A stretch of DNA of 64,000 nt from Neomicrococcus aestuarii (GCF_014201135.1 NZ_JACHDR010000001.1:248001-312000); one strand, 5' to 3'; positions 51,513-60,208 are shown, counted from the stretch's first letter. Numbers and translations are program-made. The notes: generated by a model not told the origin, from the sequence alone.

Positions 51513-52090
51513 CTCTAGTGATGCCATTCTCCCGGAGTTTGTCGGCGATTAACCAGCACCGAAATGCAGGGTCGTCGGCGTGGATGTCCAGGGCGGAGTG
51601 TTTCATGTGCGCACCGATCCAGTCGCGTTCCGACACCGGGCTGGCCTTCCAGTGGTAGTAGCCTTACTTGCTGAAACTCAACATCCTGCAGATCACCCCT
51701 ACGGGAACAGTGTCGGCGGCAAGATTCGAGGCAAGCGGGTAGATCATTTTGGGTTGGTGTCTCTGGCCAAATAGTCAGCCGCCCGACGCAGAATCTTATT
51801 CTCCGGCTGCAATAGACGATTGCACTTCTGCCGCTCCCGTATCTCGGCCGAAACCATCGCCGGGCCGGCCCGGATTCTTTATGGTCGGCGATAGTAGTCC
51901 AGCGCATCAACGTTGTGACCGAAAGCCCGAAATCCTTCGCGATCTGCGCCAGAGGCGCCTCCCCCCCCATGCGGGCGGCATCAATAACATCCAGGCGGAA
52001 CTCCGACCCATAAGTCGCGGGCATGGTCTACATACTTCCACGAGCACATGCTCGCTAGATCAGGGAGTCAACAGAACCTGGGACAGTCCC
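51513..52090 (-). pseudogene. IS3-family transposase remnant (orfA and 5' part of orfB)
   Basis: On the minus strand orfA starts at the ATG at 52024 (MPATYGSEFRLDVIDAARMGG, AQIAKDFGLSVTTLMRW), then loses its frame near 51880. The orfB start region is recognisable as ERDWIGAHMKHSALDIHADDPAFRCWLIADKLRENGI (51520-51640), again in a broken frame. The probable left terminus (CCCAGGTTCTGTTGAC type) lies upstream near 52090. The 3' half of orfB is replaced by the IS110 fragment. Dead element. Confidence 0.75.
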
Positions 52091-52214: not shown

Positions 52215-52245
52215 TTGACCTTTCTTCTGGAGCTATGTGTATGAT
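52215..52245 (+). promoter_or_regulatory. Candidate promoter of export cassette 1
   Basis: TTGACC (52215-52220) and TATGAT (52240-52245) are spaced 19 bases. They are followed by AATCACA, which is also found after the -10 of cassette 2. The gene starts 43 bases further on. Confidence 0.45.
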
Positions 52246-52287
52246 TCCAATCACAATGTAGTTCCGTCGATAGTAATTGGGGGCCCA

Positions 52288-52626
52288 GTGAAAAGACGAC
52301 TCGCTAGATCTTCAATTGCAATTCTGTTCGCATCCTTGGTGGCCGTCTCCGTTCCAGCGGCCTCCCACGCGGCTGTGGTTGAAAATGGGACTGTCAGCTG
52401 TTCCGGCAAATATGGATGGGTTAAACACCGCGTGCAAGGACCGACTCGAGCCGTACTTGCGCCGGGGCTTTCGACTTCTAGAACTGTATATACCTATAAC
52501 CTCAGTTCGAGCGTCTGGTACACCGGAGCGAACGCCGGGGCAGCGGGCGGAGGATATTGGGAGGTCTATTCTTCAACGGCCATCGATAACGCTTATACTT
52601 CTGGCTATTGCCAAACGTTTGGATGA
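52288..52626 (+). CDS. Small secreted two-cysteine protein (candidate cassette substrate)
   Basis: 112 residues from a GTG at 52288; an upstream start at 52237 overlaps the promoter. A basic N-terminus and hydrophobic core (SSIAILFASLVAVSVPAASHA) form a signal peptide with likely cleavage after Ala-x-Ala. The mature part of about 83 residues is rich in Gly, Ser, Tyr and Trp and has exactly two Cys (VSCSGKYG near its start and GYCQTFG at the end), well placed for one disulfide. I recognise no family; a bacteriocin (for example lactococcin-972-like) or surface protein is possible. The ATGA overlap with the lipoprotein gene and the ABC genes downstream suggest it is exported or guarded by this cassette. 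Confidence 0.7.
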   Translation: MKRRLARSSIAILFASLVAVSVPAASHAAVVENGTVSCSGKYGWVKHRVQGPTRAVLAPGLSTSRTVYTYNLSSSVWYTGANAGAAGGGYWEVYSSTAIDNAYTSGYCQTFG

Positions 52627-53162
52627 TTACTATTTTGAAATCGCCGAATTGGTCTTGGATGATTTTTGCCACTTTATTCACTCTTGGCATCGGAGCTTGC
52701 GCTCCTGCCCAGTCCACGCCGACACGTGACGCTGAGTTCACCGGATCCGCCGTCGAGTACCAGACTGGTTTTGAGCAATGCTTAGGTGGCAAGGGGTATG
52801 AAGTGTCAGCGGGCGACGCTAAAGGTCGCCCCGAGTCGGTGGTTGTACCCGTCGGAGTTAACACGCGGGAAGAGTCAAAAGCGTTTTTTGACGCAATGGA
52901 AGCATGCACAAATGAACTTGCACCGCGTCCGGTGGTTGACACCGACGCAGAAGTTTCGGCCTTCTATAGGAAATGGATAGAACGCTGGGATTGCTTAGCA
53001 GGTCAGGGATACGACGTGGGTAGTCGTCTCACTGAGGCAAGCTTTCGGGACAAGTTTCGCGATAGAACGCTCAATTCCACTCCACAAGAGCTACTCTCGA
53101 CCGAACAGCAGGAAAATGCATATCTAGCTTGCCCTATTTCTCAGGATGAGTTTTGGGGTTAA
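52623..53162 (+). CDS. Lipoprotein of export cassette 1
   Basis: 179 residues from the ATG at 52623, which overlaps the upstream stop (ATGA). Lipoprotein signal: IFATLFTLGIGAC with the lipid-carrying Cys near residue 23. The mature part contains two similar units, QCLGGKGYEV and DCLAGQGYDV, plus two other Cys (MEAC, YLAC), four in all. The pattern C-L-x3-G-(Y/F) recurs in the lipoprotein of cassette 2. No function is known. It could be an immunity or substrate-capture protein for the secreted product upstream. Confidence 0.7.
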   Translation: MITILKSPNWSWMIFATLFTLGIGACAPAQSTPTRDAEFTGSAVEYQTGFEQCLGGKGYEVSAGDAKGRPESVVVPVGVNTREESKAFFDAMEACTNELAPRPVVDTDAEVSAFYRKWIERWDCLAGQGYDVGSRLTEASFRDKFRDRTLNSTPQELLSTEQQENAYLACPISQDEFWG

Positions 53163-54238
53163 CCTTGCGAAAATTGCCCTCACGTTGGGCCACGACAGCG
53201 TTTTTTTCTGTATTGCTCTTAGCGGTGGGTCTGTTGGGTGGCTGGTCTCTCCAACAAGTCTTCGGTTCAGCCAGGACAGCGAGCACAGCAGATCAAGCAA
53301 CGGTCACGGTCCAGCAAGGAAGCGTTGGCTCGACGGTCTTGTTGCCAATGCAAGTGGCGTGGGAGTCGCACGAAGTAGGCGTCAACCAAGCCGTTGGCGT
53401 GGTTACCGAAATCTCCAAGAAAGACGGTGACACAGTAGCGGCAAATGATGTGCTGTACCTCGTTGACGAGGTGCCGGTCATTGCGGCTCAGGGCGTGATC
53501 CCCATGTTTAGAGACATTATTCCTGACATGCGGGGACGTGACGTGGGCCAGCTTCAACAGTTATTGCAGGAAGCTGGATTTTTGAAGCGAGAAGCACGAA
53601 GTGGTTCCGCAGATGAAGCCACCGTCACGGCCATCAAACAGTGGCAAAAAGCCCACAAACAACCGCAAACCGGAACCGTGTCTCGTGCATCTATTATTTT
53701 TCTTCCAAAGTTGCCGGTGACTCTGCGTGCTGGGACGGACGAGTTGAAACTTGGATCCAGCCTTGTGGGTGGAGAGCACCCGCTGGCAGCAATATCTAGC
53801 CAGCCTACATTCACAATATCGGGAACGTCCGCTCAGTTGGCGCGTCTACCTGAACAAGCGGAAGTCACTTTCCAATTTGGTGGACATGACTTCAAAGGCA
53901 TTTTGGGTCCCGCGCGCGAAAATCAGGAAGCTGGAAATAGTCAGGCTACTGTCCTTTCACCAGGCGGCGCCAAAAACGTTTGTGAAGACAACTGCAGTGC
54001 CTTTCCTCGTACGGGTGCCACCAAGTTGCAGGCCAAAGTCTTAGTTCTTCCGACACAAGATGGGCTGACTGTTCCAACCGCCGCCCTGATGAGCACGCCA
54101 GCAGGAAAGACTGTTCTCGAAACCGAAGACGGAGAGGTTTTCGAAGTTTCCGTAGTTCAAGAAGCCAACGGAATTTCGTTGATTACGGGGGCTCGTGAAG
54201 GACAGGAAGTCAAAGTTCCATCCCAGATTGCACCGTAG
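53153..54238 (+). CDS. Peptidoglycan-binding membrane-fusion adaptor, cassette 1
   Basis: About 361 residues from a TTG at 53153; a TTG four codons later is also possible. One N-terminal helix (AFFSVLLLAVGLLGGWSL) anchors an extracytoplasmic HlyD-like protein. A PGBD-type unit (DMRGRDVGQLQQLLQEAGFL...ATVTAIKQWQKAHKQPQTGTV) is inserted near residues 125-175. A beta-barrel-type region follows with the loop NVCEDNCSAF, a C-x3-C pair also found in the cassette 2 adaptor. Such adaptors link an ABC permease to the wall in Gram-positive actinobacteria. It overlaps the lipoprotein gene and touches the ATPase gene. Confidence 0.82.
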   Translation: MGLTLRKLPSRWATTAFFSVLLLAVGLLGGWSLQQVFGSARTASTADQATVTVQQGSVGSTVLLPMQVAWESHEVGVNQAVGVVTEISKKDGDTVAANDVLYLVDEVPVIAAQGVIPMFRDIIPDMRGRDVGQLQQLLQEAGFLKREARSGSADEATVTAIKQWQKAHKQPQTGTVSRASIIFLPKLPVTLRAGTDELKLGSSLVGGEHPLAAISSQPTFTISGTSAQLARLPEQAEVTFQFGGHDFKGILGPARENQEAGNSQATVLSPGGAKNVCEDNCSAFPRTGATKLQAKVLVLPTQDGLTVPTAALMSTPAGKTVLETEDGEVFEVSVVQEANGISLITGAREGQEVKVPSQIAP

Positions 54239-54885
54239 TGGACGCCTTACAACTCGCCGTTAGGGATTTGAACTTCGGCTACACCTCTCAAGACCTCATT
54301 ATTCGCGACTGGGAGCATGACTTCGAGGGCAAAGAAGTAGTAGCTCTGACAGGCCCTAGCGGCAGAGGCAAATCCACCTTGCTGTACCTTTTGGGCCTGA
54401 TGCTCAGTCCTTTGAGCGGCCACATTATGCTGGACGGTGAAAACGTCGGCGCACTCAACGACGCCGAACGAGCCGCTCGGCGAGCCCAAAAATACGGATT
54501 TGTCTTTCAAGACTCTGCACTAGATCCCACTCGAACAGTCCTAGACAACGTGCTGGAAACAACTCTGTACCGTGGCGTCAGTCGGGAAGAGCAGACGCCG
54601 CGCGCGTTAGAACTTCTTGACGCTTTTGGGGTCTCGTTGAGAGCTACCCATAAACCAGGACAAATTTCAGGTGGTCAGGCACAGCGCATTGCTCTGTGTC
54701 GCGCGCTCTTGTCCACCCCTCAAGTGTTGCTATGCGACGAACCAACCGGAAATCTGGACGCTGCTTCGGCATCCTCTGTTATCAGCGGCATTCGAGATCA
54801 CGCTGCCAGCGGTGCCATAGTCATCATTGCGACCCATGACCCTTTTCTCATGGACCATTGCGACCGAAGAGTGGAGCTGACATGA
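54238..54885 (+). CDS. ABC transporter ATP-binding protein, cassette 1
   Basis: 215 residues from a GTG that shares a base with the adaptor stop. All ABC motifs are present: Walker A GPSGRGKST near residue 40, Q-loop VFQDSALDP, signature ISGGQAQRIAL near residue 141, Walker B VLLCDEPTGNLD and H-loop ATHD. It is of the MacB/LolD type (short ATPase serving FtsX-like permeases). It would drive export or mechanotransmission rather than import. It is coupled to the permease by an ATGA overlap. Confidence 0.93.
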   Translation: MDALQLAVRDLNFGYTSQDLIIRDWEHDFEGKEVVALTGPSGRGKSTLLYLLGLMLSPLSGHIMLDGENVGALNDAERAARRAQKYGFVFQDSALDPTRTVLDNVLETTLYRGVSREEQTPRALELLDAFGVSLRATHKPGQISGGQAQRIALCRALLSTPQVLLCDEPTGNLDAASASSVISGIRDHAASGAIVIIATHDPFLMDHCDRRVELT

Positions 54886-55961
54886 AACTTGGTCCGCTCT
54901 TCGGGGAGGCGCTCAGGAGCGCACGTAGCCAGAAGGTGCCCTCGCTACTAGCAATTCTGCTCATCGCAGGCTTGTGCGTGACGGTGCTCTTGACATCGGG
55001 GCGTGCCGTGGGTGCGCAACAGTCCGTACTGGGCAGCATTGATAACATTTCGGCTCGACAACTGATTGTCACGGCACCGGAGGACGCCGGGCTGCGTTCC
55101 GCCGTCATCGACCGCATTGCGCAGTACAGCTTAGTGACTAAAGTGTTTGCTTTTGGCCCTGCTGTGGACGCAAGGAACACGGTAATTCAAGGAGGAGATG
55201 CCGTCCCTTTCCGCGTCCTTTTTCAGCCGTCAGCAACGCACAGCGCAAATGACGCACTTGGTTCGGCCAGGGTGTCAACCCCAGCTCAAGAAACTTTGGG
55301 AATGCAGCTTCCTGCAGGCGCGGTTGTTACCGCTTCCGGTGATCTGCTGGGCGTAATTGGCTCTTTCGAACCGTCCGTATTTACAGAGCCTTTTGAACCG
55401 CTGTTAGTGTCTGAAAAGCAGGCAAACGCCAATGAGAGGATCGCGACGCTTGTGATCACGGCGCGATCTGTGGCCGACCTTGACCGCGTCGAAGAATATG
55501 TAGCAACGGTCTTAGGTGTGCAATCAATGCAGGGCGTCAGCATTCAAAAAGACGCGTCTGTCGCGCAATTGCGGGCTACGGTAGACAATCAGTTGGGCAG
55601 CTTCAGTTCGGGGCTGGTCGCGGCAATATTTGGCCTCACGGGGGTGCTGGTTGCCGCGGTCCTCTACGCTTTGGTTTTCTTGCGGCGCAAGGATTTTGGA
55701 CGACGACGCGCCCTCGGCGCCAGCCGAACCCTCATTTTGGCGCTCATCCTAATTCAAATAGGAATTTTGGCTGCGGGCGGTGCCGTGCTCGGCTCATTGG
55801 TTTCGGCACTTTGGCTGTCTTCAACAGGCGACCCTCTTCCGCCGACCCCGTACTTTGCAGGAGTCGCGATACTCGCGGTCATTACCGCGCTCATCGCTGC
55901 CGTACTTCCAGCACTGTCGGCGGCCCGACGCGATCCCATCCGTGAGCTCCGCGTGGCCTAA
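54882..55961 (+). CDS. FtsX/MacB-like ABC permease, cassette 1
   Basis: 359 residues from the ATG at 54882. One N-terminal helix (VPSLLAILLIAGLCVTVLLTSG) is followed by an extracytoplasmic domain of about 200 residues. Three C-terminal helices come next, with the FtsX-like cytoplasmic coupling segment FGRRRALGASRTLILALILIQ. The C-terminus ARRDPIRELRVA is typical. Type VII ABC proteins of this kind do not move substrate through themselves but push on partners outside the membrane, fitting the adaptor and the secreted proteins around it. Confidence 0.88.
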   Translation: MKLGPLFGEALRSARSQKVPSLLAILLIAGLCVTVLLTSGRAVGAQQSVLGSIDNISARQLIVTAPEDAGLRSAVIDRIAQYSLVTKVFAFGPAVDARNTVIQGGDAVPFRVLFQPSATHSANDALGSARVSTPAQETLGMQLPAGAVVTASGDLLGVIGSFEPSVFTEPFEPLLVSEKQANANERIATLVITARSVADLDRVEEYVATVLGVQSMQGVSIQKDASVAQLRATVDNQLGSFSSGLVAAIFGLTGVLVAAVLYALVFLRRKDFGRRRALGASRTLILALILIQIGILAAGGAVLGSLVSALWLSSTGDPLPPTPYFAGVAILAVITALIAAVLPALSAARRDPIRELRVA

Positions 55962-56207
55962 TATTCAGTGAGTCGCACGTGGTTTGATGGTTATTTTGCG
56001 TTCGAATACTGGGCGTTCCTGTCTGTCGCGGTTACCATCGGATATTGGCTTGAAGACAGAGTGCGTTTGATCACCCGTTGTTGATTCAGTCGGTGTCTAC
56101 TGAGGAACCTTTGAACGGGGGTGCCGAAATTTCCGATTTCCGGAACACCCAGCGGCGTGCCGTTGAATCGTTGAAACGGCTGAAAAGCGAACTGTTATTG
56201 CATTTCT

Positions 56208-56248
56208 TTGACGATCCCCGCTTTGGATTCTATGATGTGAATCACATC
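56208..56248 (+). promoter_or_regulatory. Promoter and palindromic operator of cassette 2
   Basis: TTGACG (56208-56213) and TATGAT (56231-56236) have a 17-base spacer. Overlapping the -10 is a perfect 15-base palindrome GATGTGAATCACATC (56234-56248), well placed for a repressor. Confidence 0.6.
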
Positions 56249-56277
56249 TTGAATGTTTGAAATTGGGGGACCGCTAT

Positions 56278-56730
56278 ATGCAAAAGCACTGGTTTGCAGG
56301 TGGGGTCGGTCTCGCTTTTGTCCCGTTTGTAGCCAGTGCATCTAGCGCAGCTCCTGAACTTGCTACGAACTCCACGCGTCCCTCAAACTACGCAGGGTAC
56401 GAGTCTCAATACGGAGATTGGCGGTCTAATTTTATTGAGTGCGTCCGAAAATATGGTGGAGATGCGAAGGTAGCCGCAGACAATGAAGGAATTGTGGGGG
56501 CCATAATCAAGGGGCGCCCAACCTCGAAAGACGGGCTCGACCAAGGATGCGTTTCAGAAGTGGGCGCTCCGCCCGAGCTGCCACCTTCGTCACCCGAATT
56601 TTGGCAGGGTATGTATGCGGTCCATGTAGAAAGCGGCGGAAATCTTGATGAGGCTCTTCGGAGTTGTCCGCAGCCGAAACCGCGCGAAGCTGAAGAAAAA
56701 GGTCAGCAATTGGCAGGCCAAAGCTCATGA
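56278..56730 (+). CDS. Shortened paralogue of the cassette 2 lipoprotein
   Basis: 150 residues from the ATG at 56278 (GGGGGA upstream). The mature part aligns with the lipoprotein at 59621: PSNY-x2-Y, Y-x-DWR, IEC-x-R-(K/R)YG-x-DAK, KGRP and the final CPQPKP block. Relative to that paralogue it lacks about 38 residues, including the C-L-R-S-K-G-F unit. Its signal region (GVGLAFVPFVASASSAAPE) has no lipobox Cys, so it would be secreted rather than lipidated. It may be a released form, a decoy, or decaying. It overlaps the next gene by ATGA. Confidence 0.7.
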   Translation: MQKHWFAGGVGLAFVPFVASASSAAPELATNSTRPSNYAGYESQYGDWRSNFIECVRKYGGDAKVAADNEGIVGAIIKGRPTSKDGLDQGCVSEVGAPPELPPSSPEFWQGMYAVHVESGGNLDEALRSCPQPKPREAEEKGQQLAGQSS

Positions 56731-57842
56731 CGACAAGCGGGGAATCAGTCCGCCGAGGTACCTCCCGACGGTGGAAGGTTGGCATCGCATGGGCGCTGTC
56801 ACTTGTAGTTGCTCTCGGGGTTGGATGGTGGGGTGCCCTCCAGGCAACAAATCCTCCTACTATTGCAGCACCCGCTCATACGAGAGCGAGTGTCGAAGCG
56901 GTCAACGGTTCCGTCAGCGTGAGACAGTCCTACGGAATTGATGCGTCTTGGGCTTCATCAATTGTGGCGACTGGTGGTAACACGGGCACAATAACTACAA
57001 TCGATATGCCGTTGGACGGTCAGTCAACGGTATCCGGCAGCCGCGTCTTTTCGGTGGATTTGCAACCAATCTTTGTCATTAATGGCAAGATTCCGTCCTT
57101 CCGTGATCTCTCGAGCGGGGTAAGCGGAGCGGACGTTCAGCAGCTTCAGGAGTTCCTTGTCAGCAAGAGATACCTCGGTACAACTTTTACAAGAACGCGT
57201 TTCGACAATGCCACCAATACTGCTGTTTCCAAGTGGGCTAAGGATGCGGGATTCAGCTATGACGGCACATTACCGCGATGGCGAGTGATCTATGTGCCAG
57301 ATCTCCCAAAGGTCCTCGTTCCTCTGGAATCCCTTCGTGTGGGAGCGCAAATTTCACAAGGTCAAGAACTACTTCAAGGACCTGTGGCGGATCCCGTCTT
57401 CAGTTTCCGGGTGCTTCCCGAAAACGTTTCAAAGATCACTCCCGGGCTTAAGGTGGTTATCGATACTTCCGGCGAGCAGTGGTCCGGACGTGTTTCTCGC
57501 TTGGAAAATACCGCCGGCGACGTGTCCGAGACCGTGGCCATACTGGAGCCAGAACAAGGACAAGCCTCCATCTGTGGGGGTGAGTGTTCTAGAGCGGTGA
57601 AGCTTGGAGACAAGACAGTTTTGCCGGGAATTATTGAATTGATTCCAGAACAGACTGGCGTTCAAATTCCCACGGCAGCAGTACGATCGGATGCCAACAA
57701 TAAGACCTTTGTCTTCATTTCCGATGGCGTTCGTCGTGAAATCACGCTTAAAGTTTCGGACCAAGGAAAGAGCATTGTTGAAGGAATTAATGTGGGGGAT
57801 CGAGTCCTGCTTGGTGACGCGAGCGAAGAGCAGACGCCTTGA
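56727..57842 (+). CDS. Peptidoglycan-binding membrane-fusion adaptor, cassette 2
   Basis: 371 residues. An N-terminal helix (VGIAWALSLVVALGVGWWGAL) is followed by an extracytoplasmic adaptor laid out as in cassette 1. The PGBD-like unit has IPSFRDLSSGVSGADVQQLQEFL near residues 115-140, then a barrel-type domain with the loop SICGGECSRAV, the same C-x3-C position as in cassette 1. The sequence is clearly diverged from its counterpart, so the duplication is old or the cassettes were acquired separately. The start overlaps the lipoprotein-like gene, and the stop overlaps the ATPase start. Confidence 0.82.
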   Translation: MTTSGESVRRGTSRRWKVGIAWALSLVVALGVGWWGALQATNPPTIAAPAHTRASVEAVNGSVSVRQSYGIDASWASSIVATGGNTGTITTIDMPLDGQSTVSGSRVFSVDLQPIFVINGKIPSFRDLSSGVSGADVQQLQEFLVSKRYLGTTFTRTRFDNATNTAVSKWAKDAGFSYDGTLPRWRVIYVPDLPKVLVPLESLRVGAQISQGQELLQGPVADPVFSFRVLPENVSKITPGLKVVIDTSGEQWSGRVSRLENTAGDVSETVAILEPEQGQASICGGECSRAVKLGDKTVLPGIIELIPEQTGVQIPTAAVRSDANNKTFVFISDGVRREITLKVSDQGKSIVEGINVGDRVLLGDASEEQTP

Positions 57843-58483
57843 AGGTCAGCATTTCTACACTCGAACACCGATATCAGCCTGGTATGGCTCCAACGATTTC
57901 CGCGATCTCACGTACCTTTGAACCGGGTACCCTGACGTGTATCACTGGGCCGTCTGGGTCTGGAAAATCTACTCTGCTCTACATCATGGCGTTGATGCTC
58001 ACTCCCAGTGCCGGAATTATTCAGTGGGGAAACACATCAGTCCAGCAACTCAACGATGCTTCACGTTCGCGATTGCGGGCTATGCACGCGGGATTCGTTT
58101 TTCAGGACGCAATGCTGGACTTGTCCAGAACAGCTTTGGACAATGTTGTGGAAGCTGCTCGGATCGCAGGAATCTCACACAACGTAGCCGTTGAAGATGC
58201 GTTCCGTCTCTTAGAGCGCTTCGGCGTTGCGCATCGTGCCCAGCACAGGCCCGCTGAGCTATCAGGTGGTCAGGCTCAACGAATTGCGTTATGCAGGGCT
58301 CTGGTCAAAGATCCGGATATCATTTTCGCCGACGAACCCACGGGAAATCTAGATTCTGAATCAGCCGAAATTGTTTGGGATACGCTTCATCAAGCTGCCG
58401 ACGCTGGTGCAACGGTAATCGTCGCCACCCATGACAGGGACCGGGCGGAAAAGCATACGCATCACTTGAGGCTCGGCGAATGA
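57839..58483 (+). CDS. ABC transporter ATP-binding protein, cassette 2
   Basis: 214 residues from a TTG that overlaps the adaptor stop. Walker A GPSGSGKST, Q-loop VFQDAMLDLSR, signature LSGGQAQRIAL, Walker B IIFADEPTGNLD and H-loop ATHD are all intact. MacB/LolD type, close in layout to the cassette 1 ATPase (both have SGGQAQRIALCRAL). It should energise the FtsX-like permease that overlaps its end by 4 bases. Confidence 0.93.
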   Translation: MKVSISTLEHRYQPGMAPTISAISRTFEPGTLTCITGPSGSGKSTLLYIMALMLTPSAGIIQWGNTSVQQLNDASRSRLRAMHAGFVFQDAMLDLSRTALDNVVEAARIAGISHNVAVEDAFRLLERFGVAHRAQHRPAELSGGQAQRIALCRALVKDPDIIFADEPTGNLDSESAEIVWDTLHQAADAGATVIVATHDRDRAEKHTHHLRLGE

Positions 58484-59604
58484 GCGAAAAATCGAGTTCA
58501 GGGCACCCCCAAACGAGCTATTTTGTCCGAGACGCGCTTTTGAGACTGCGTCGACCTCTTGTCCCGACGATCGTTTCCATCTTCATTGTTTTCGCGGCTA
58601 CGCTAGCAATTTTTGCCACCACTGGTTTGGCAATGGCGAGTCAGCAACGAGCGCTGGACAACATCAATTCTCCAGAGGGACGTCTGATCACTATCACTGA
58701 CTCTCAAGGAAGTGCCGGGATCTCCACGGAATCTCTTCGGCTAATTTCTAGCCTGGAAGACGTGGAATGGGTATTTGGGATGGGGCCGGCAACAGATGTC
58801 CATAACCTCAACGTTTCTGATGGCGAAATAGTGCAAGCGCGGCGGGTTTTCGGTGACTTCCCGCCTGTCATTGACTCGCCGGTTGCCATGAACCTGAAGG
58901 ACGGTCAGGCAGTTGCGCCCGTTGAAGTGCTGAGGAAACTTGGTATGGCGGATGACGTGGGGACGGTCTCCAGTCGCACGCTGACGGGAGACATCGCTGG
59001 TCAATTTCATGCCGAATCGCCATTGACGACGCTCAACAAAAACGTCTTGGTAGTCTCGGATGGCAAATCAAGCGGTAGCAATATTATGACTCTTTGGGTC
59101 AGCGTCAAAGACGTTCGTAGCTTGGAAATGACATCCAAAGCCGTGATGGAAACACTGGTGTCCACCCAGCCGGAAAAGTTGCGCGTAACCATGACAAGCG
59201 AGCTTGCCAGGTTGAGCCAGGACGTTCAAAACGAGATGGCGAGTACCGCAAGACAGACGGTGACCGGCCTTCTGTTAGCTTCAGCTCTGTTGTTGAGCGC
59301 AGTCCAGTTTGGGCGCGTGTCGGGTCTTGCAAAAGATATCGGAAGAACACGGGCGCTCGGTGGTTCTCGAAGTGCTGTGGTGGCCCAAATTCTCATCAAC
59401 GCAGGACTTTCTGGGGTGTTAGGAGCCTTCCTCGGAATCGTCGCCGGATCCATCCTGACGTTGACGCTCGCCGGCGGAATTCCATCTTTCGGATTCAGTG
59501 TGGGCGTTGGCATCTTGATGGTGTTGGCCGCGATTTTTGGATCGATTCCGCCTGCAGTTCGTGCGGCATATATGGACCCGGTCAAAATTCTTCGAGTGCC
59601 GTAG
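58480..59604 (+). CDS. FtsX/MacB-like ABC permease, cassette 2
   Basis: 374 residues. N-terminal helix (PLVPTIVSIFIVFAATLAIFATTG), a large extracytoplasmic domain, then three C-terminal helices with the coupling segment IGRTRALGGSRSAVVAQILINAG. The C-terminus is AAYMDPVKILRVP. It shares with cassette 1 the pattern ASQQRALDNINSPEGRLITITD versus GAQQSVLGSIDNISARQLIVTA after the first helix, so the two permeases are true paralogues. The lipoprotein gene follows after 16 bases. Confidence 0.88.
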   Translation: MSEKSSSGHPQTSYFVRDALLRLRRPLVPTIVSIFIVFAATLAIFATTGLAMASQQRALDNINSPEGRLITITDSQGSAGISTESLRLISSLEDVEWVFGMGPATDVHNLNVSDGEIVQARRVFGDFPPVIDSPVAMNLKDGQAVAPVEVLRKLGMADDVGTVSSRTLTGDIAGQFHAESPLTTLNKNVLVVSDGKSSGSNIMTLWVSVKDVRSLEMTSKAVMETLVSTQPEKLRVTMTSELARLSQDVQNEMASTARQTVTGLLLASALLLSAVQFGRVSGLAKDIGRTRALGGSRSAVVAQILINAGLSGVLGAFLGIVAGSILTLTLAGGIPSFGFSVGVGILMVLAAIFGSIPPAVRAAYMDPVKILRVP

Positions 59605-59620
59605 GTGAAGGGAAGAGTCG

Positions 59621-60208
59621 ATGAACAGATTTCCACTGCAAGGAGTCGCGAAGAAGCTTGCGTTTGTATTCGTGGCCATTGCCACCGCTGGTGTTGCGGT
59701 GACTGGTTGCTCTGCACCCCAAGAAAAGGCGGCGAGTACCACTCCCAGCAACTACGACGAATACAATGCGCTCTACGCCGATTGGCGAACAAAATACATT
59801 GAGTGCGCCAGAAGATACGGAGCGGATGCAAAAATATCTGCGGACGGCGAAGGCATCGATAAGCCCTATGCAAAGGGGCGGCCTCTTTCCGAAGAAGGCT
59901 TGGATGCGGACTGCATCAAAGAAGTGGGCAAAGAGCCGCCACTTCCGCCCGCTGACGAAAGCTATTTCCATGGTCTGTATGCGCTACTTCAAGAAAGCGC
60001 AACGTGTCTTAGAAGCAAGGGATTCCGTGTTTCGGAAGCACCCAGCGAGGACGTCTGGGTTGAAACATATAGTGGAACCTCCTGGTATCCGTGGCTAGAA
60101 ATCATGAACACTGGCGGGGATGCCGATGCCGCACTTCGCGCGTGCCCTCAACCCAAACCCATGGACATTGAACGTAAGGGAAAAGAGTGGGCAGCCACAA
60201 AGGGATAA
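59621..60208 (+). CDS. Lipoprotein of export cassette 2
   Basis: 195 residues. Lipoprotein signal: LAFVFVAIATAGVAVTGC with the lipid Cys near residue 30. The mature part has four Cys (IECARRYG, DADCIKEVG, TCLRSKGF, RACPQPK) and conserved Trp and Tyr residues. It is the full-length relative of the protein at 56278 and shares the C-L-x3-G-(Y/F) unit with the cassette 1 lipoprotein. Presumably it sits on the outer face of the membrane beside the adaptor. Last gene of the island; dxr begins 8 bases after it, so read-through into dxr is possible. Confidence 0.72.
   Translation: MNRFPLQGVAKKLAFVFVAIATAGVAVTGCSAPQEKAASTTPSNYDEYNALYADWRTKYIECARRYGADAKISADGEGIDKPYAKGRPLSEEGLDADCIKEVGKEPPLPPADESYFHGLYALLQESATCLRSKGFRVSEAPSEDVWVETYSGTSWYPWLEIMNTGGDADAALRACPQPKPMDIERKGKEWAATKG

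What the first reader, a model, noticed from the sequence alone, without database searches (positions are those of the whole stretch)
52215..60208. Two tandem copies of an uncharacterised export cassette with Cys-rich secreted proteins
Cassette 1 is secreted two-Cys protein, lipoprotein, PGBD-containing adaptor, ABC ATPase, FtsX-like permease. Cassette 2 is lipoprotein-like protein, adaptor, ATPase, permease, lipoprotein. Genes are coupled by ATGA or similar overlaps and each cassette has its own promoter region. The two sets are paralogous but well diverged. MacB-type ABC systems with adaptors move periplasmic or wall-side cargo. The small protein with signal peptide and one possible disulfide is a natural cargo or toxin, and the lipoproteins are natural immunity or receptor partners. 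I do not recognise the set as a described system.
Basis: partly seen in the sequence, partly recalled or inferred. Interest (0 to 1): 0.75.

Follow-up and report, generated by a model that had tools for sequence, protein, structure and literature searches.

The report
Hypervariable secreted protein with ABC-transporter operon
Scattered actinobacteria carry an undescribed operon that secretes a small, very fast-evolving protein, probably disulfide-bonded, next to a lipoprotein and a wall-anchored ABC transporter, which looks like a new family of bacteriocins (weapons against close relatives) with its own self-protection genes.

Summary
Window 52215-60208 has two complete lipoprotein / PGBD-adaptor / ABC-ATPase / FtsX-permease cassettes, and cassette 1 starts with a Sec-secreted two-Cys protein. 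Both share a promoter-like motif (TATGATNNNAATCACA) that occurs nowhere else in the 2.89-Mb genome. The cassettes belong to a clade that differs from ordinary actinobacterial MacAB-like efflux loci: the ATPase reads FVFQ(D/N)xxLD instead of FVFQQ, and the adaptor has a CxxxC motif. About 9% of sampled genomes of the order have it, in many families and on a Clavibacter plasmid. In 42 of 73 distinct cassettes a homologous small protein (~75 aa mature, Cys near each end, beta-sandwich model) lies within 5.5 kb; generic loci give 1 of 16. The small protein diverges far faster than its transporter, occurs in tandem variants, and is often broken or lost while the transporter stays; the sister species has an internal deletion. 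No Pfam, NCBIfam or PADLOC family matches it. Most likely it is a Sec-secreted bacteriocin whose lipoprotein and ABC complex give immunity, working like YknWXYZ/SDP, Lcn972 or propionicin T1 but not shown to be a member of any. The two cassettes are separate lineages, not a recent duplication; cassette 2 lacks the small gene. No activity has been tested.

The parts
52215..52255 (+). promoter-like element of cassette 1: TTGACC, 19 nt, TATGAT, then AATCACA
   Evidence: TATGATNNNAATCACA occurs only twice in the whole genome; conserved in the sister species (L068)
52288..52626 (+). small Sec-secreted two-Cys protein (112 aa, about 84 mature); GTG start, alternative upstream start 52237
   Evidence: family alignment A6; mature-only leave-one-out profile score 33 bits; AF2 all-beta model, mean pLDDT 79; no Pfam/NCBIfam/PADLOC match
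52623..53162 (+). lipoprotein lp1, ATGA overlap with the small gene
   Evidence: lipobox GIGAC read from sequence; no Pfam/NCBIfam family; belongs to the lipoprotein family found in 68 of 73 clade cassettes
53165..54238 (+). membrane-fusion adaptor 1 with peptidoglycan-binding domain and CEDNC motif
   Evidence: PF01471 E 7e-10; 401 bits to clade profile A2
54238..54885 (+). ABC ATPase 1, FVFQDSALD signature
   Evidence: PF00005 E 1e-28; signature
54882..55961 (+). FtsX-like permease 1
   Evidence: PF02687 E 9e-9
56208..56246 (+). promoter-like element of cassette 2: TTGACG, 17 nt, TATGAT, then GTGAATCACA
   Evidence: second and last genome copy of TATGATNNNAATCACA; sigma-70-like site
56278..56730 (+). 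lp2: secreted, lipobox-less, internally shortened relative of lp3
   Evidence: 49% identity to lp3 over residues 25-125 and 53% over 163-192; no lipobox Cys
56727..57842 (+). adaptor 2 with PGBD and CGGEC motif
   Evidence: PF01471 E 0.0017, below cut-off; 372 bits to A2
57839..58483 (+). ABC ATPase 2, FVFQDAMLD signature
   Evidence: PF00005 E 2e-28
58480..59604 (+). FtsX-like permease 2
   Evidence: PF02687 E 2e-4, below cut-off
59621..60208 (+). lipoprotein lp3
   Evidence: lipobox VTGC from sequence; homologues beside cassettes in other genomes

Best explanation
Cassette 1 encodes a bacteriocin-type competition system. The small protein is exported by Sec, cleaved, and folds outside the cell into a small beta-sandwich, probably stapled by one disulfide between a Cys near its N-terminus and a Cys near its C-terminus. 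It would act at the envelope of close relatives that lack the cognate lipoprotein and ABC set. The producer protects itself with the lipoprotein (surface capture) and a tripartite, wall-anchored MacAB/YknXYZ-like complex (PGBD adaptor, ATPase, FtsX permease) that keeps the protein off its target. Cassette 2 and many cassettes in other genomes have lost or lack the small gene and would be immunity-only. Shown: gene content, the clade, family homology of the small protein, its linkage to the cassette, fast divergence, repeated loss, shared promoter motif. Inferred: disulfide, toxicity, target, immunity role.
For: Small gene within 5.5 kb of 42 of 73 clade cassettes against 1 of 16 generic PGBD-adaptor ABC loci by the same criteria (Fisher p 2e-4), none found far from an adaptor in the 1.17 Mb examined. 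39 of 47 mature small proteins are recovered by a profile built without them at E below 0.025 (Z set to 1000), so this is one family. At 53-64% adaptor identity, small proteins are mostly only 19-32% identical. Tandem variants: L184 x3, L050/L051 x2, L108 x2, L125 x2, L170 x2. Broken or partial copies beside intact cassettes: sister species internal deletion, L058 frameshift, L174, L181. Cassettes with and without the small gene are interleaved in the tree. Patchy occurrence, 34 of 396 genomes of the order; plasmid copy in Clavibacter. Analogues: YknWXYZ protects from disulfide-containing SDP (PMC4887032); Lcn972 immunity genes orf2-orf3 (PMC4055356); propionicin T1 with adjacent ABC thought to give resistance (PMC5756557); 27.5% of pneumococci keep scbBC without scbA (PMC11796350).
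Against: No toxicity, secretion or immunity data. No detectable homology to a characterised bacteriocin. Fast divergence and loss would also fit a hypervariable signal or receptor ligand. The lipoprotein also accompanies generic efflux loci without the small gene. One orphan small gene has no cassette nearby (L201/L224). The small-gene search rules were set after seeing examples; several contigs are truncated, and genes were called by my own script.
Confidence: 0.6

Rival explanations
1. Export or assembly machine: after Sec export the small protein is extracted from the membrane and pushed through the wall by the PGBD-anchored ABC complex, with lipoprotein as chaperone; the small protein is a surface or matrix factor rather than a toxin.
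For: MacB-type complexes move substrates from outside the membrane; the adaptor CxxxC motif is present in the 73 cassettes counted as clade (it was part of the count's definition) and absent from most generic loci, and could act in disulfide exchange with the two-Cys cargo (inference).
Against: Cassettes persist without any cargo gene in many genomes; the small gene is the part that is lost; Sec already exports it.
Confidence: 0.2
2. Sensing or signalling: the small protein is a secreted, hypervariable ligand read by lipoprotein and the FtsX-type complex to control wall enzymes or kin recognition.
For: FtsX-type complexes can regulate wall hydrolases (established for FtsEX); matched diversification would be expected; the two cassettes share one promoter motif.
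Against: No hydrolase or two-component system was seen to be conserved with the clade (by eye); no conserved ligand surface beyond the two Cys, a Gly and a Trp.
Confidence: 0.12
3. General envelope-stress or drug efflux system with an incidental small secreted neighbour.
For: Generic PGBD-adaptor FtsX cassettes with lipoprotein exist, several with two-component systems.
Against: Strong clade-specific linkage of a homologous small protein, operon coupling by ATGA, distinct ATPase and adaptor signatures.
Confidence: 0.08

Closest known systems
YknWXYZ / SDP (SdpC) of Bacillus (PMC4887032)
   Same: adaptor plus ATPase plus MacB-like permease that protects against a secreted toxin containing one disulfide
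   Different: no linked toxin gene of this family; YknX has no PGBD to my knowledge; a membrane protein YknW instead of a lipoprotein; different toxin
Lactococcin 972 / streptococcin loci (TIGR01653, TIGR01654, TIGR03608; PMC4055356, PMC11796350)
   Same: Sec-type secreted unmodified small protein next to an ABC ATPase and a membrane protein; immunity-only loci are common
   Different: no significant profile match; membrane partner TIGR01654 absent; adaptor and lipoprotein absent from Lcn972 loci
Propionicin T1 / thoeniicin 447 (PMC5756557)
   Same: actinobacterial Sec-secreted 65-aa bacteriocin with an ABC gene 68 nt downstream thought to give resistance
   Different: sequence relationship not tested (no sequence held); no adaptor or lipoprotein reported in the passage read
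MacAB-type PGBD-adaptor efflux loci of actinobacteria (here L078-L087, L191-L193)
   Same: lipoprotein, PGBD adaptor, ATPase, FtsX permease in the same order
   Different: ATPase FVFQQ and no adaptor CxxxC in most, no family small protein; several have two-component systems

Membership tests
Lactococcin 972 family | small protein matches TIGR01653 / Pfam Lactococcin_972 | tested here: not met
   18 family members scanned, no match; hhalign of mature profiles: 5 columns aligned, probability 0.04% (its shuffled controls misbehaved in 3 of 90); best Lcn972-like sequence L208 scores 6 bits with the mature profile
Lactococcin 972 family | bacteriocin-associated integral membrane protein (TIGR01654) next to it | tested here: not met
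   permeases match FtsX PF02687 / ADOP weakly, not TIGR01654
Lactococcin 972 family | same beta-sandwich fold as the solved Lcn972 structure | tested here: inconclusive
   AF2 model pLDDT 79 is all-beta; PDB matches are generic, best Z 6.3, Lcn972 not among the rows shown
L_ocin_972_ABC (TIGR03608) | ATPase above curated cut-off 255 bits | tested here: not met
   151 and 148 bits
MacAB / YknXYZ tripartite transporter | membrane-fusion adaptor, separate ATPase and FtsX-like permease in one operon | tested here: met
   PF00005 and PF02687 matches, adaptor weakly RND_mfp (E 0.004, below cut-off) with PGBD; operon overlaps
MacAB / YknXYZ tripartite transporter | MacB periplasmic core domain PF12704 in the permease | tested here: not met
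   own-genome search finds PF12704 only at C1:32146 and C1:35129, not in these cassettes
MacAB / YknXYZ tripartite transporter | protects the cell from the linked toxin | not testable with these tools
   needs deletion mutants
Bacteriocin (functional class) | secreted protein that inhibits related bacteria, with cognate immunity | not testable with these tools
   signal peptide, hypervariability and linkage shown; activity not
Propionicin T1 | sequence homology of the bacteriocin | not tested

The most novel reading that the evidence does not exclude
A phylum-wide, hypervariable family of disulfide-stapled beta-sandwich proteins handled by a wall-anchored adaptor-ABC complex through thiol chemistry (adaptor CxxxC with the cargo's two Cys), used as a new class of folded-protein bacteriocin or kin-recognition signal in actinobacteria.
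Probability: 0.2. Interest if true: 0.85.

Novelty: new variant of a known kind. Interest (0 to 1): 0.62.

Why it matters
To my knowledge, few ribosomal, unmodified bacteriocins are known in actinobacteria. This would add a family found from Actinomycetes to Acidimicrobiia and Nitriliruptoria, hidden because the small protein is too divergent and short to be annotated (on the Clavibacter plasmid the ORF is absent from the gene table held here, which is incomplete). It gives a genomic rule for finding more members (adaptor CxxxC plus ATPase FVFQ(D/N)xxLD), and an experimentally simple test of what PGBD-adaptor MacB-like systems do in cells without an outer membrane.

Tried and rejected
Recent tandem duplication of one cassette: rejected by the tree and by 28% adaptor identity between cassettes. 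Anti-phage defence: no PADLOC match. Phage origin: only one of 32 members matches a PHROG (of unknown function) below 0.001. Lcn972 membership: no profile support; an A6 hit to a true Lcn972-like protein (L208, E 9e-5) falls to 6 bits when the signal peptide is removed. First AF2 model (pLDDT 59) was too weak and was replaced by one from a 32-sequence alignment. Fold searches against PDB gave only generic beta-sandwich matches; Lcn972 is not among the listed rows, which shows nothing. The search for related loci with adaptor alignments failed; a trimmed ATPase alignment worked. The genus was not identified.

Full report
What is there. The window lies at C1:248001-312000 of a 2.89-Mb two-contig genome. 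The finding's gene order is correct. Cassette 1 is small secreted protein, lipoprotein, PGBD adaptor, ATPase, permease; cassette 2 is lp2, adaptor, ATPase, permease, lp3. The cassette genes are 52-58% G+C against 58.8% for the window. Both cassettes are preceded by TTGAC(C/G) and, 17-19 nt later, TATGATNNNAATCACA, a motif found only at these two places in the genome (0 for the reversed control), and kept in the sister species. The two cassettes are therefore probably co-regulated (inference).

The clade. PGBD-adaptor ABC cassettes are common in the order. Comparing 40 of them gave two classes. One class (L049-L077) has adaptors with a CxxxC motif (spaced a little wider in L055 and L076) and ATPases reading FVFQ(D/N)xxLD, with FIFQSAELD in L077; the other (L078-L087) mostly reads FVFQQ or FIFQQ (FIFQA in L085) and lacks the adaptor motif. 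An adaptor profile (A2) separates the classes by score: clade members at 188 bits or more, nearly all at 228 or above, generic loci at about 104-143, with one intermediate locus, L190, at 186. The clade occurs in 34 of 396 genomes of the order, 8 of 297 of the class and about 5 of 396 of the phylum (the window's own genome is in each sample). Named carriers with an intact small gene include Subtercola boreus, Microbacterium, Cellulomonas septica, Serinicoccus, Brachybacterium massiliense, an Actinomyces MAG, a Propionibacteriaceae MAG, an Acidimicrobiia MAG and a Nitriliruptoraceae MAG, and a mobilizable plasmid of Clavibacter sp. A6099, where the small ORF is missing from the listed genes.

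The small protein. Around the cassettes there is repeatedly a Sec-signal protein of about 100-137 aa with one Cys near the mature N-terminus (usually after G-[ST]-x-x) and one near the C-terminus. With the same search rules, 42 of 73 distinct clade cassettes and 1 of 16 generic ones (L190, the intermediate) have it within 5.5 kb, Fisher p 2e-4; no such ORF lay further from an adaptor in the 1.17 Mb examined. The count of 42 includes window cassette 2, which is near the small gene of cassette 1. The most frequent arrangement is upstream on the same strand, as in the window. With signal peptides removed, a leave-one-out profile recovers 39 of 47 members at E below 0.025 with Z set to 1000, the window's protein at 33 bits. 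No Pfam, NCBIfam or PADLOC family matches, and PDB sequence search gives only weak hits, most of which begin in the signal peptide. AlphaFold2 with 32 relatives gives an all-beta model (pLDDT 79, pTM 0.65) whose PDB neighbours are generic beta-sandwiches.

Evolution. At adaptor identities of 53-64% the mature small proteins are mostly 19-32% identical, one pair 50%. Closely related pairs are too few for a selection test: dN/dS is about 0.25-1 for small genes and 0.13-0.19 for adaptors. Several loci hold two or three different copies (L184, L125, L108, L050/L051, L170). The gene is often lost or broken: the sister species G001 has an internal deletion that removes about 190 bp including the signal cleavage region and first Cys; L058 is frameshifted relative to L062; partial copies sit at L174 and L181. 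Cassettes with and without the gene are interleaved in the tree. In 228 genomes, the eight family hits below 1e-17 all lie beside cassettes; L201 (6.6e-10) is an orphan without a cassette in 15 kb.

Cassette 2. It is a different lineage from cassette 1. It has no small gene, and lp2 has lost the lipobox and an internal segment. It looks like an immunity-only or decaying copy (inference). The lipoprotein family is found in 68 of 73 clade cassettes but also in 16 of 16 generic ones, so it belongs to the wider transporter type.

Mechanism. The small protein carries its own Sec signal, so the ABC complex is not needed to cross the membrane. The closest working analogues are immunity systems: YknWXYZ protects Bacillus from SDP, a 42-aa toxin with one disulfide (PMC4887032); Lcn972 is accompanied by putative ABC immunity genes (PMC4055356); the ABC gene beside Sec-secreted propionicin T1 is thought to give resistance (PMC5756557); 27.5% of pneumococcal genomes keep scbBC without the bacteriocin gene (PMC11796350). 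Loss of the small gene with retention of the cassette is what toxin-immunity systems show, and is hard to explain if the ABC exists to export it. I therefore favour a bacteriocin with lipoprotein and ABC immunity (0.6), against export (0.2), signalling (0.12) and incidental linkage (0.08).

Limits. Search rules for the small gene were chosen after seeing examples, though the generic loci serve as a control. Gene calls come from my own script. Many contigs are truncated, so absences are upper bounds. No function was tested.

Noticed in passing
window 51515-52024 (-): Transposase-like remnant (helix-turn-helix start) just upstream of cassette 1; the sister species has IS3-type transposase pieces at the same side (L004), suggesting an insertion-prone spot.
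   Followed up: partly
L208 1501-1794 / L225 4666-4959 and following genes: A two-Cys lactococcin-972-like protein (TIGR01653 E 4e-5, below cut-off) followed by a TIGR01654-type membrane protein and an ATPase; its Cys positions resemble the new family.
   Followed up: partly
L226 5774-6088 and L088 7224-7616: Generic-type PGBD-adaptor ABC loci in two other genomes also have a small secreted Cys protein of apparently unrelated sequence before the lipoprotein, so other small-protein families may be coupled to this transporter type.
   Followed up: no
L184 4549-5642: Three tandem, diverging copies of the small gene opposite to the cassette in one genome.
   Followed up: partly
L224 7707-8033: Orphan small-protein gene beside recR and transposase pieces without any cassette in 15 kb.
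   Followed up: yes
G000 C1:1783837-1784772 (L085): A further PGBD-adaptor ABC operon of the generic type in the same genome, without a small protein.
   Followed up: partly
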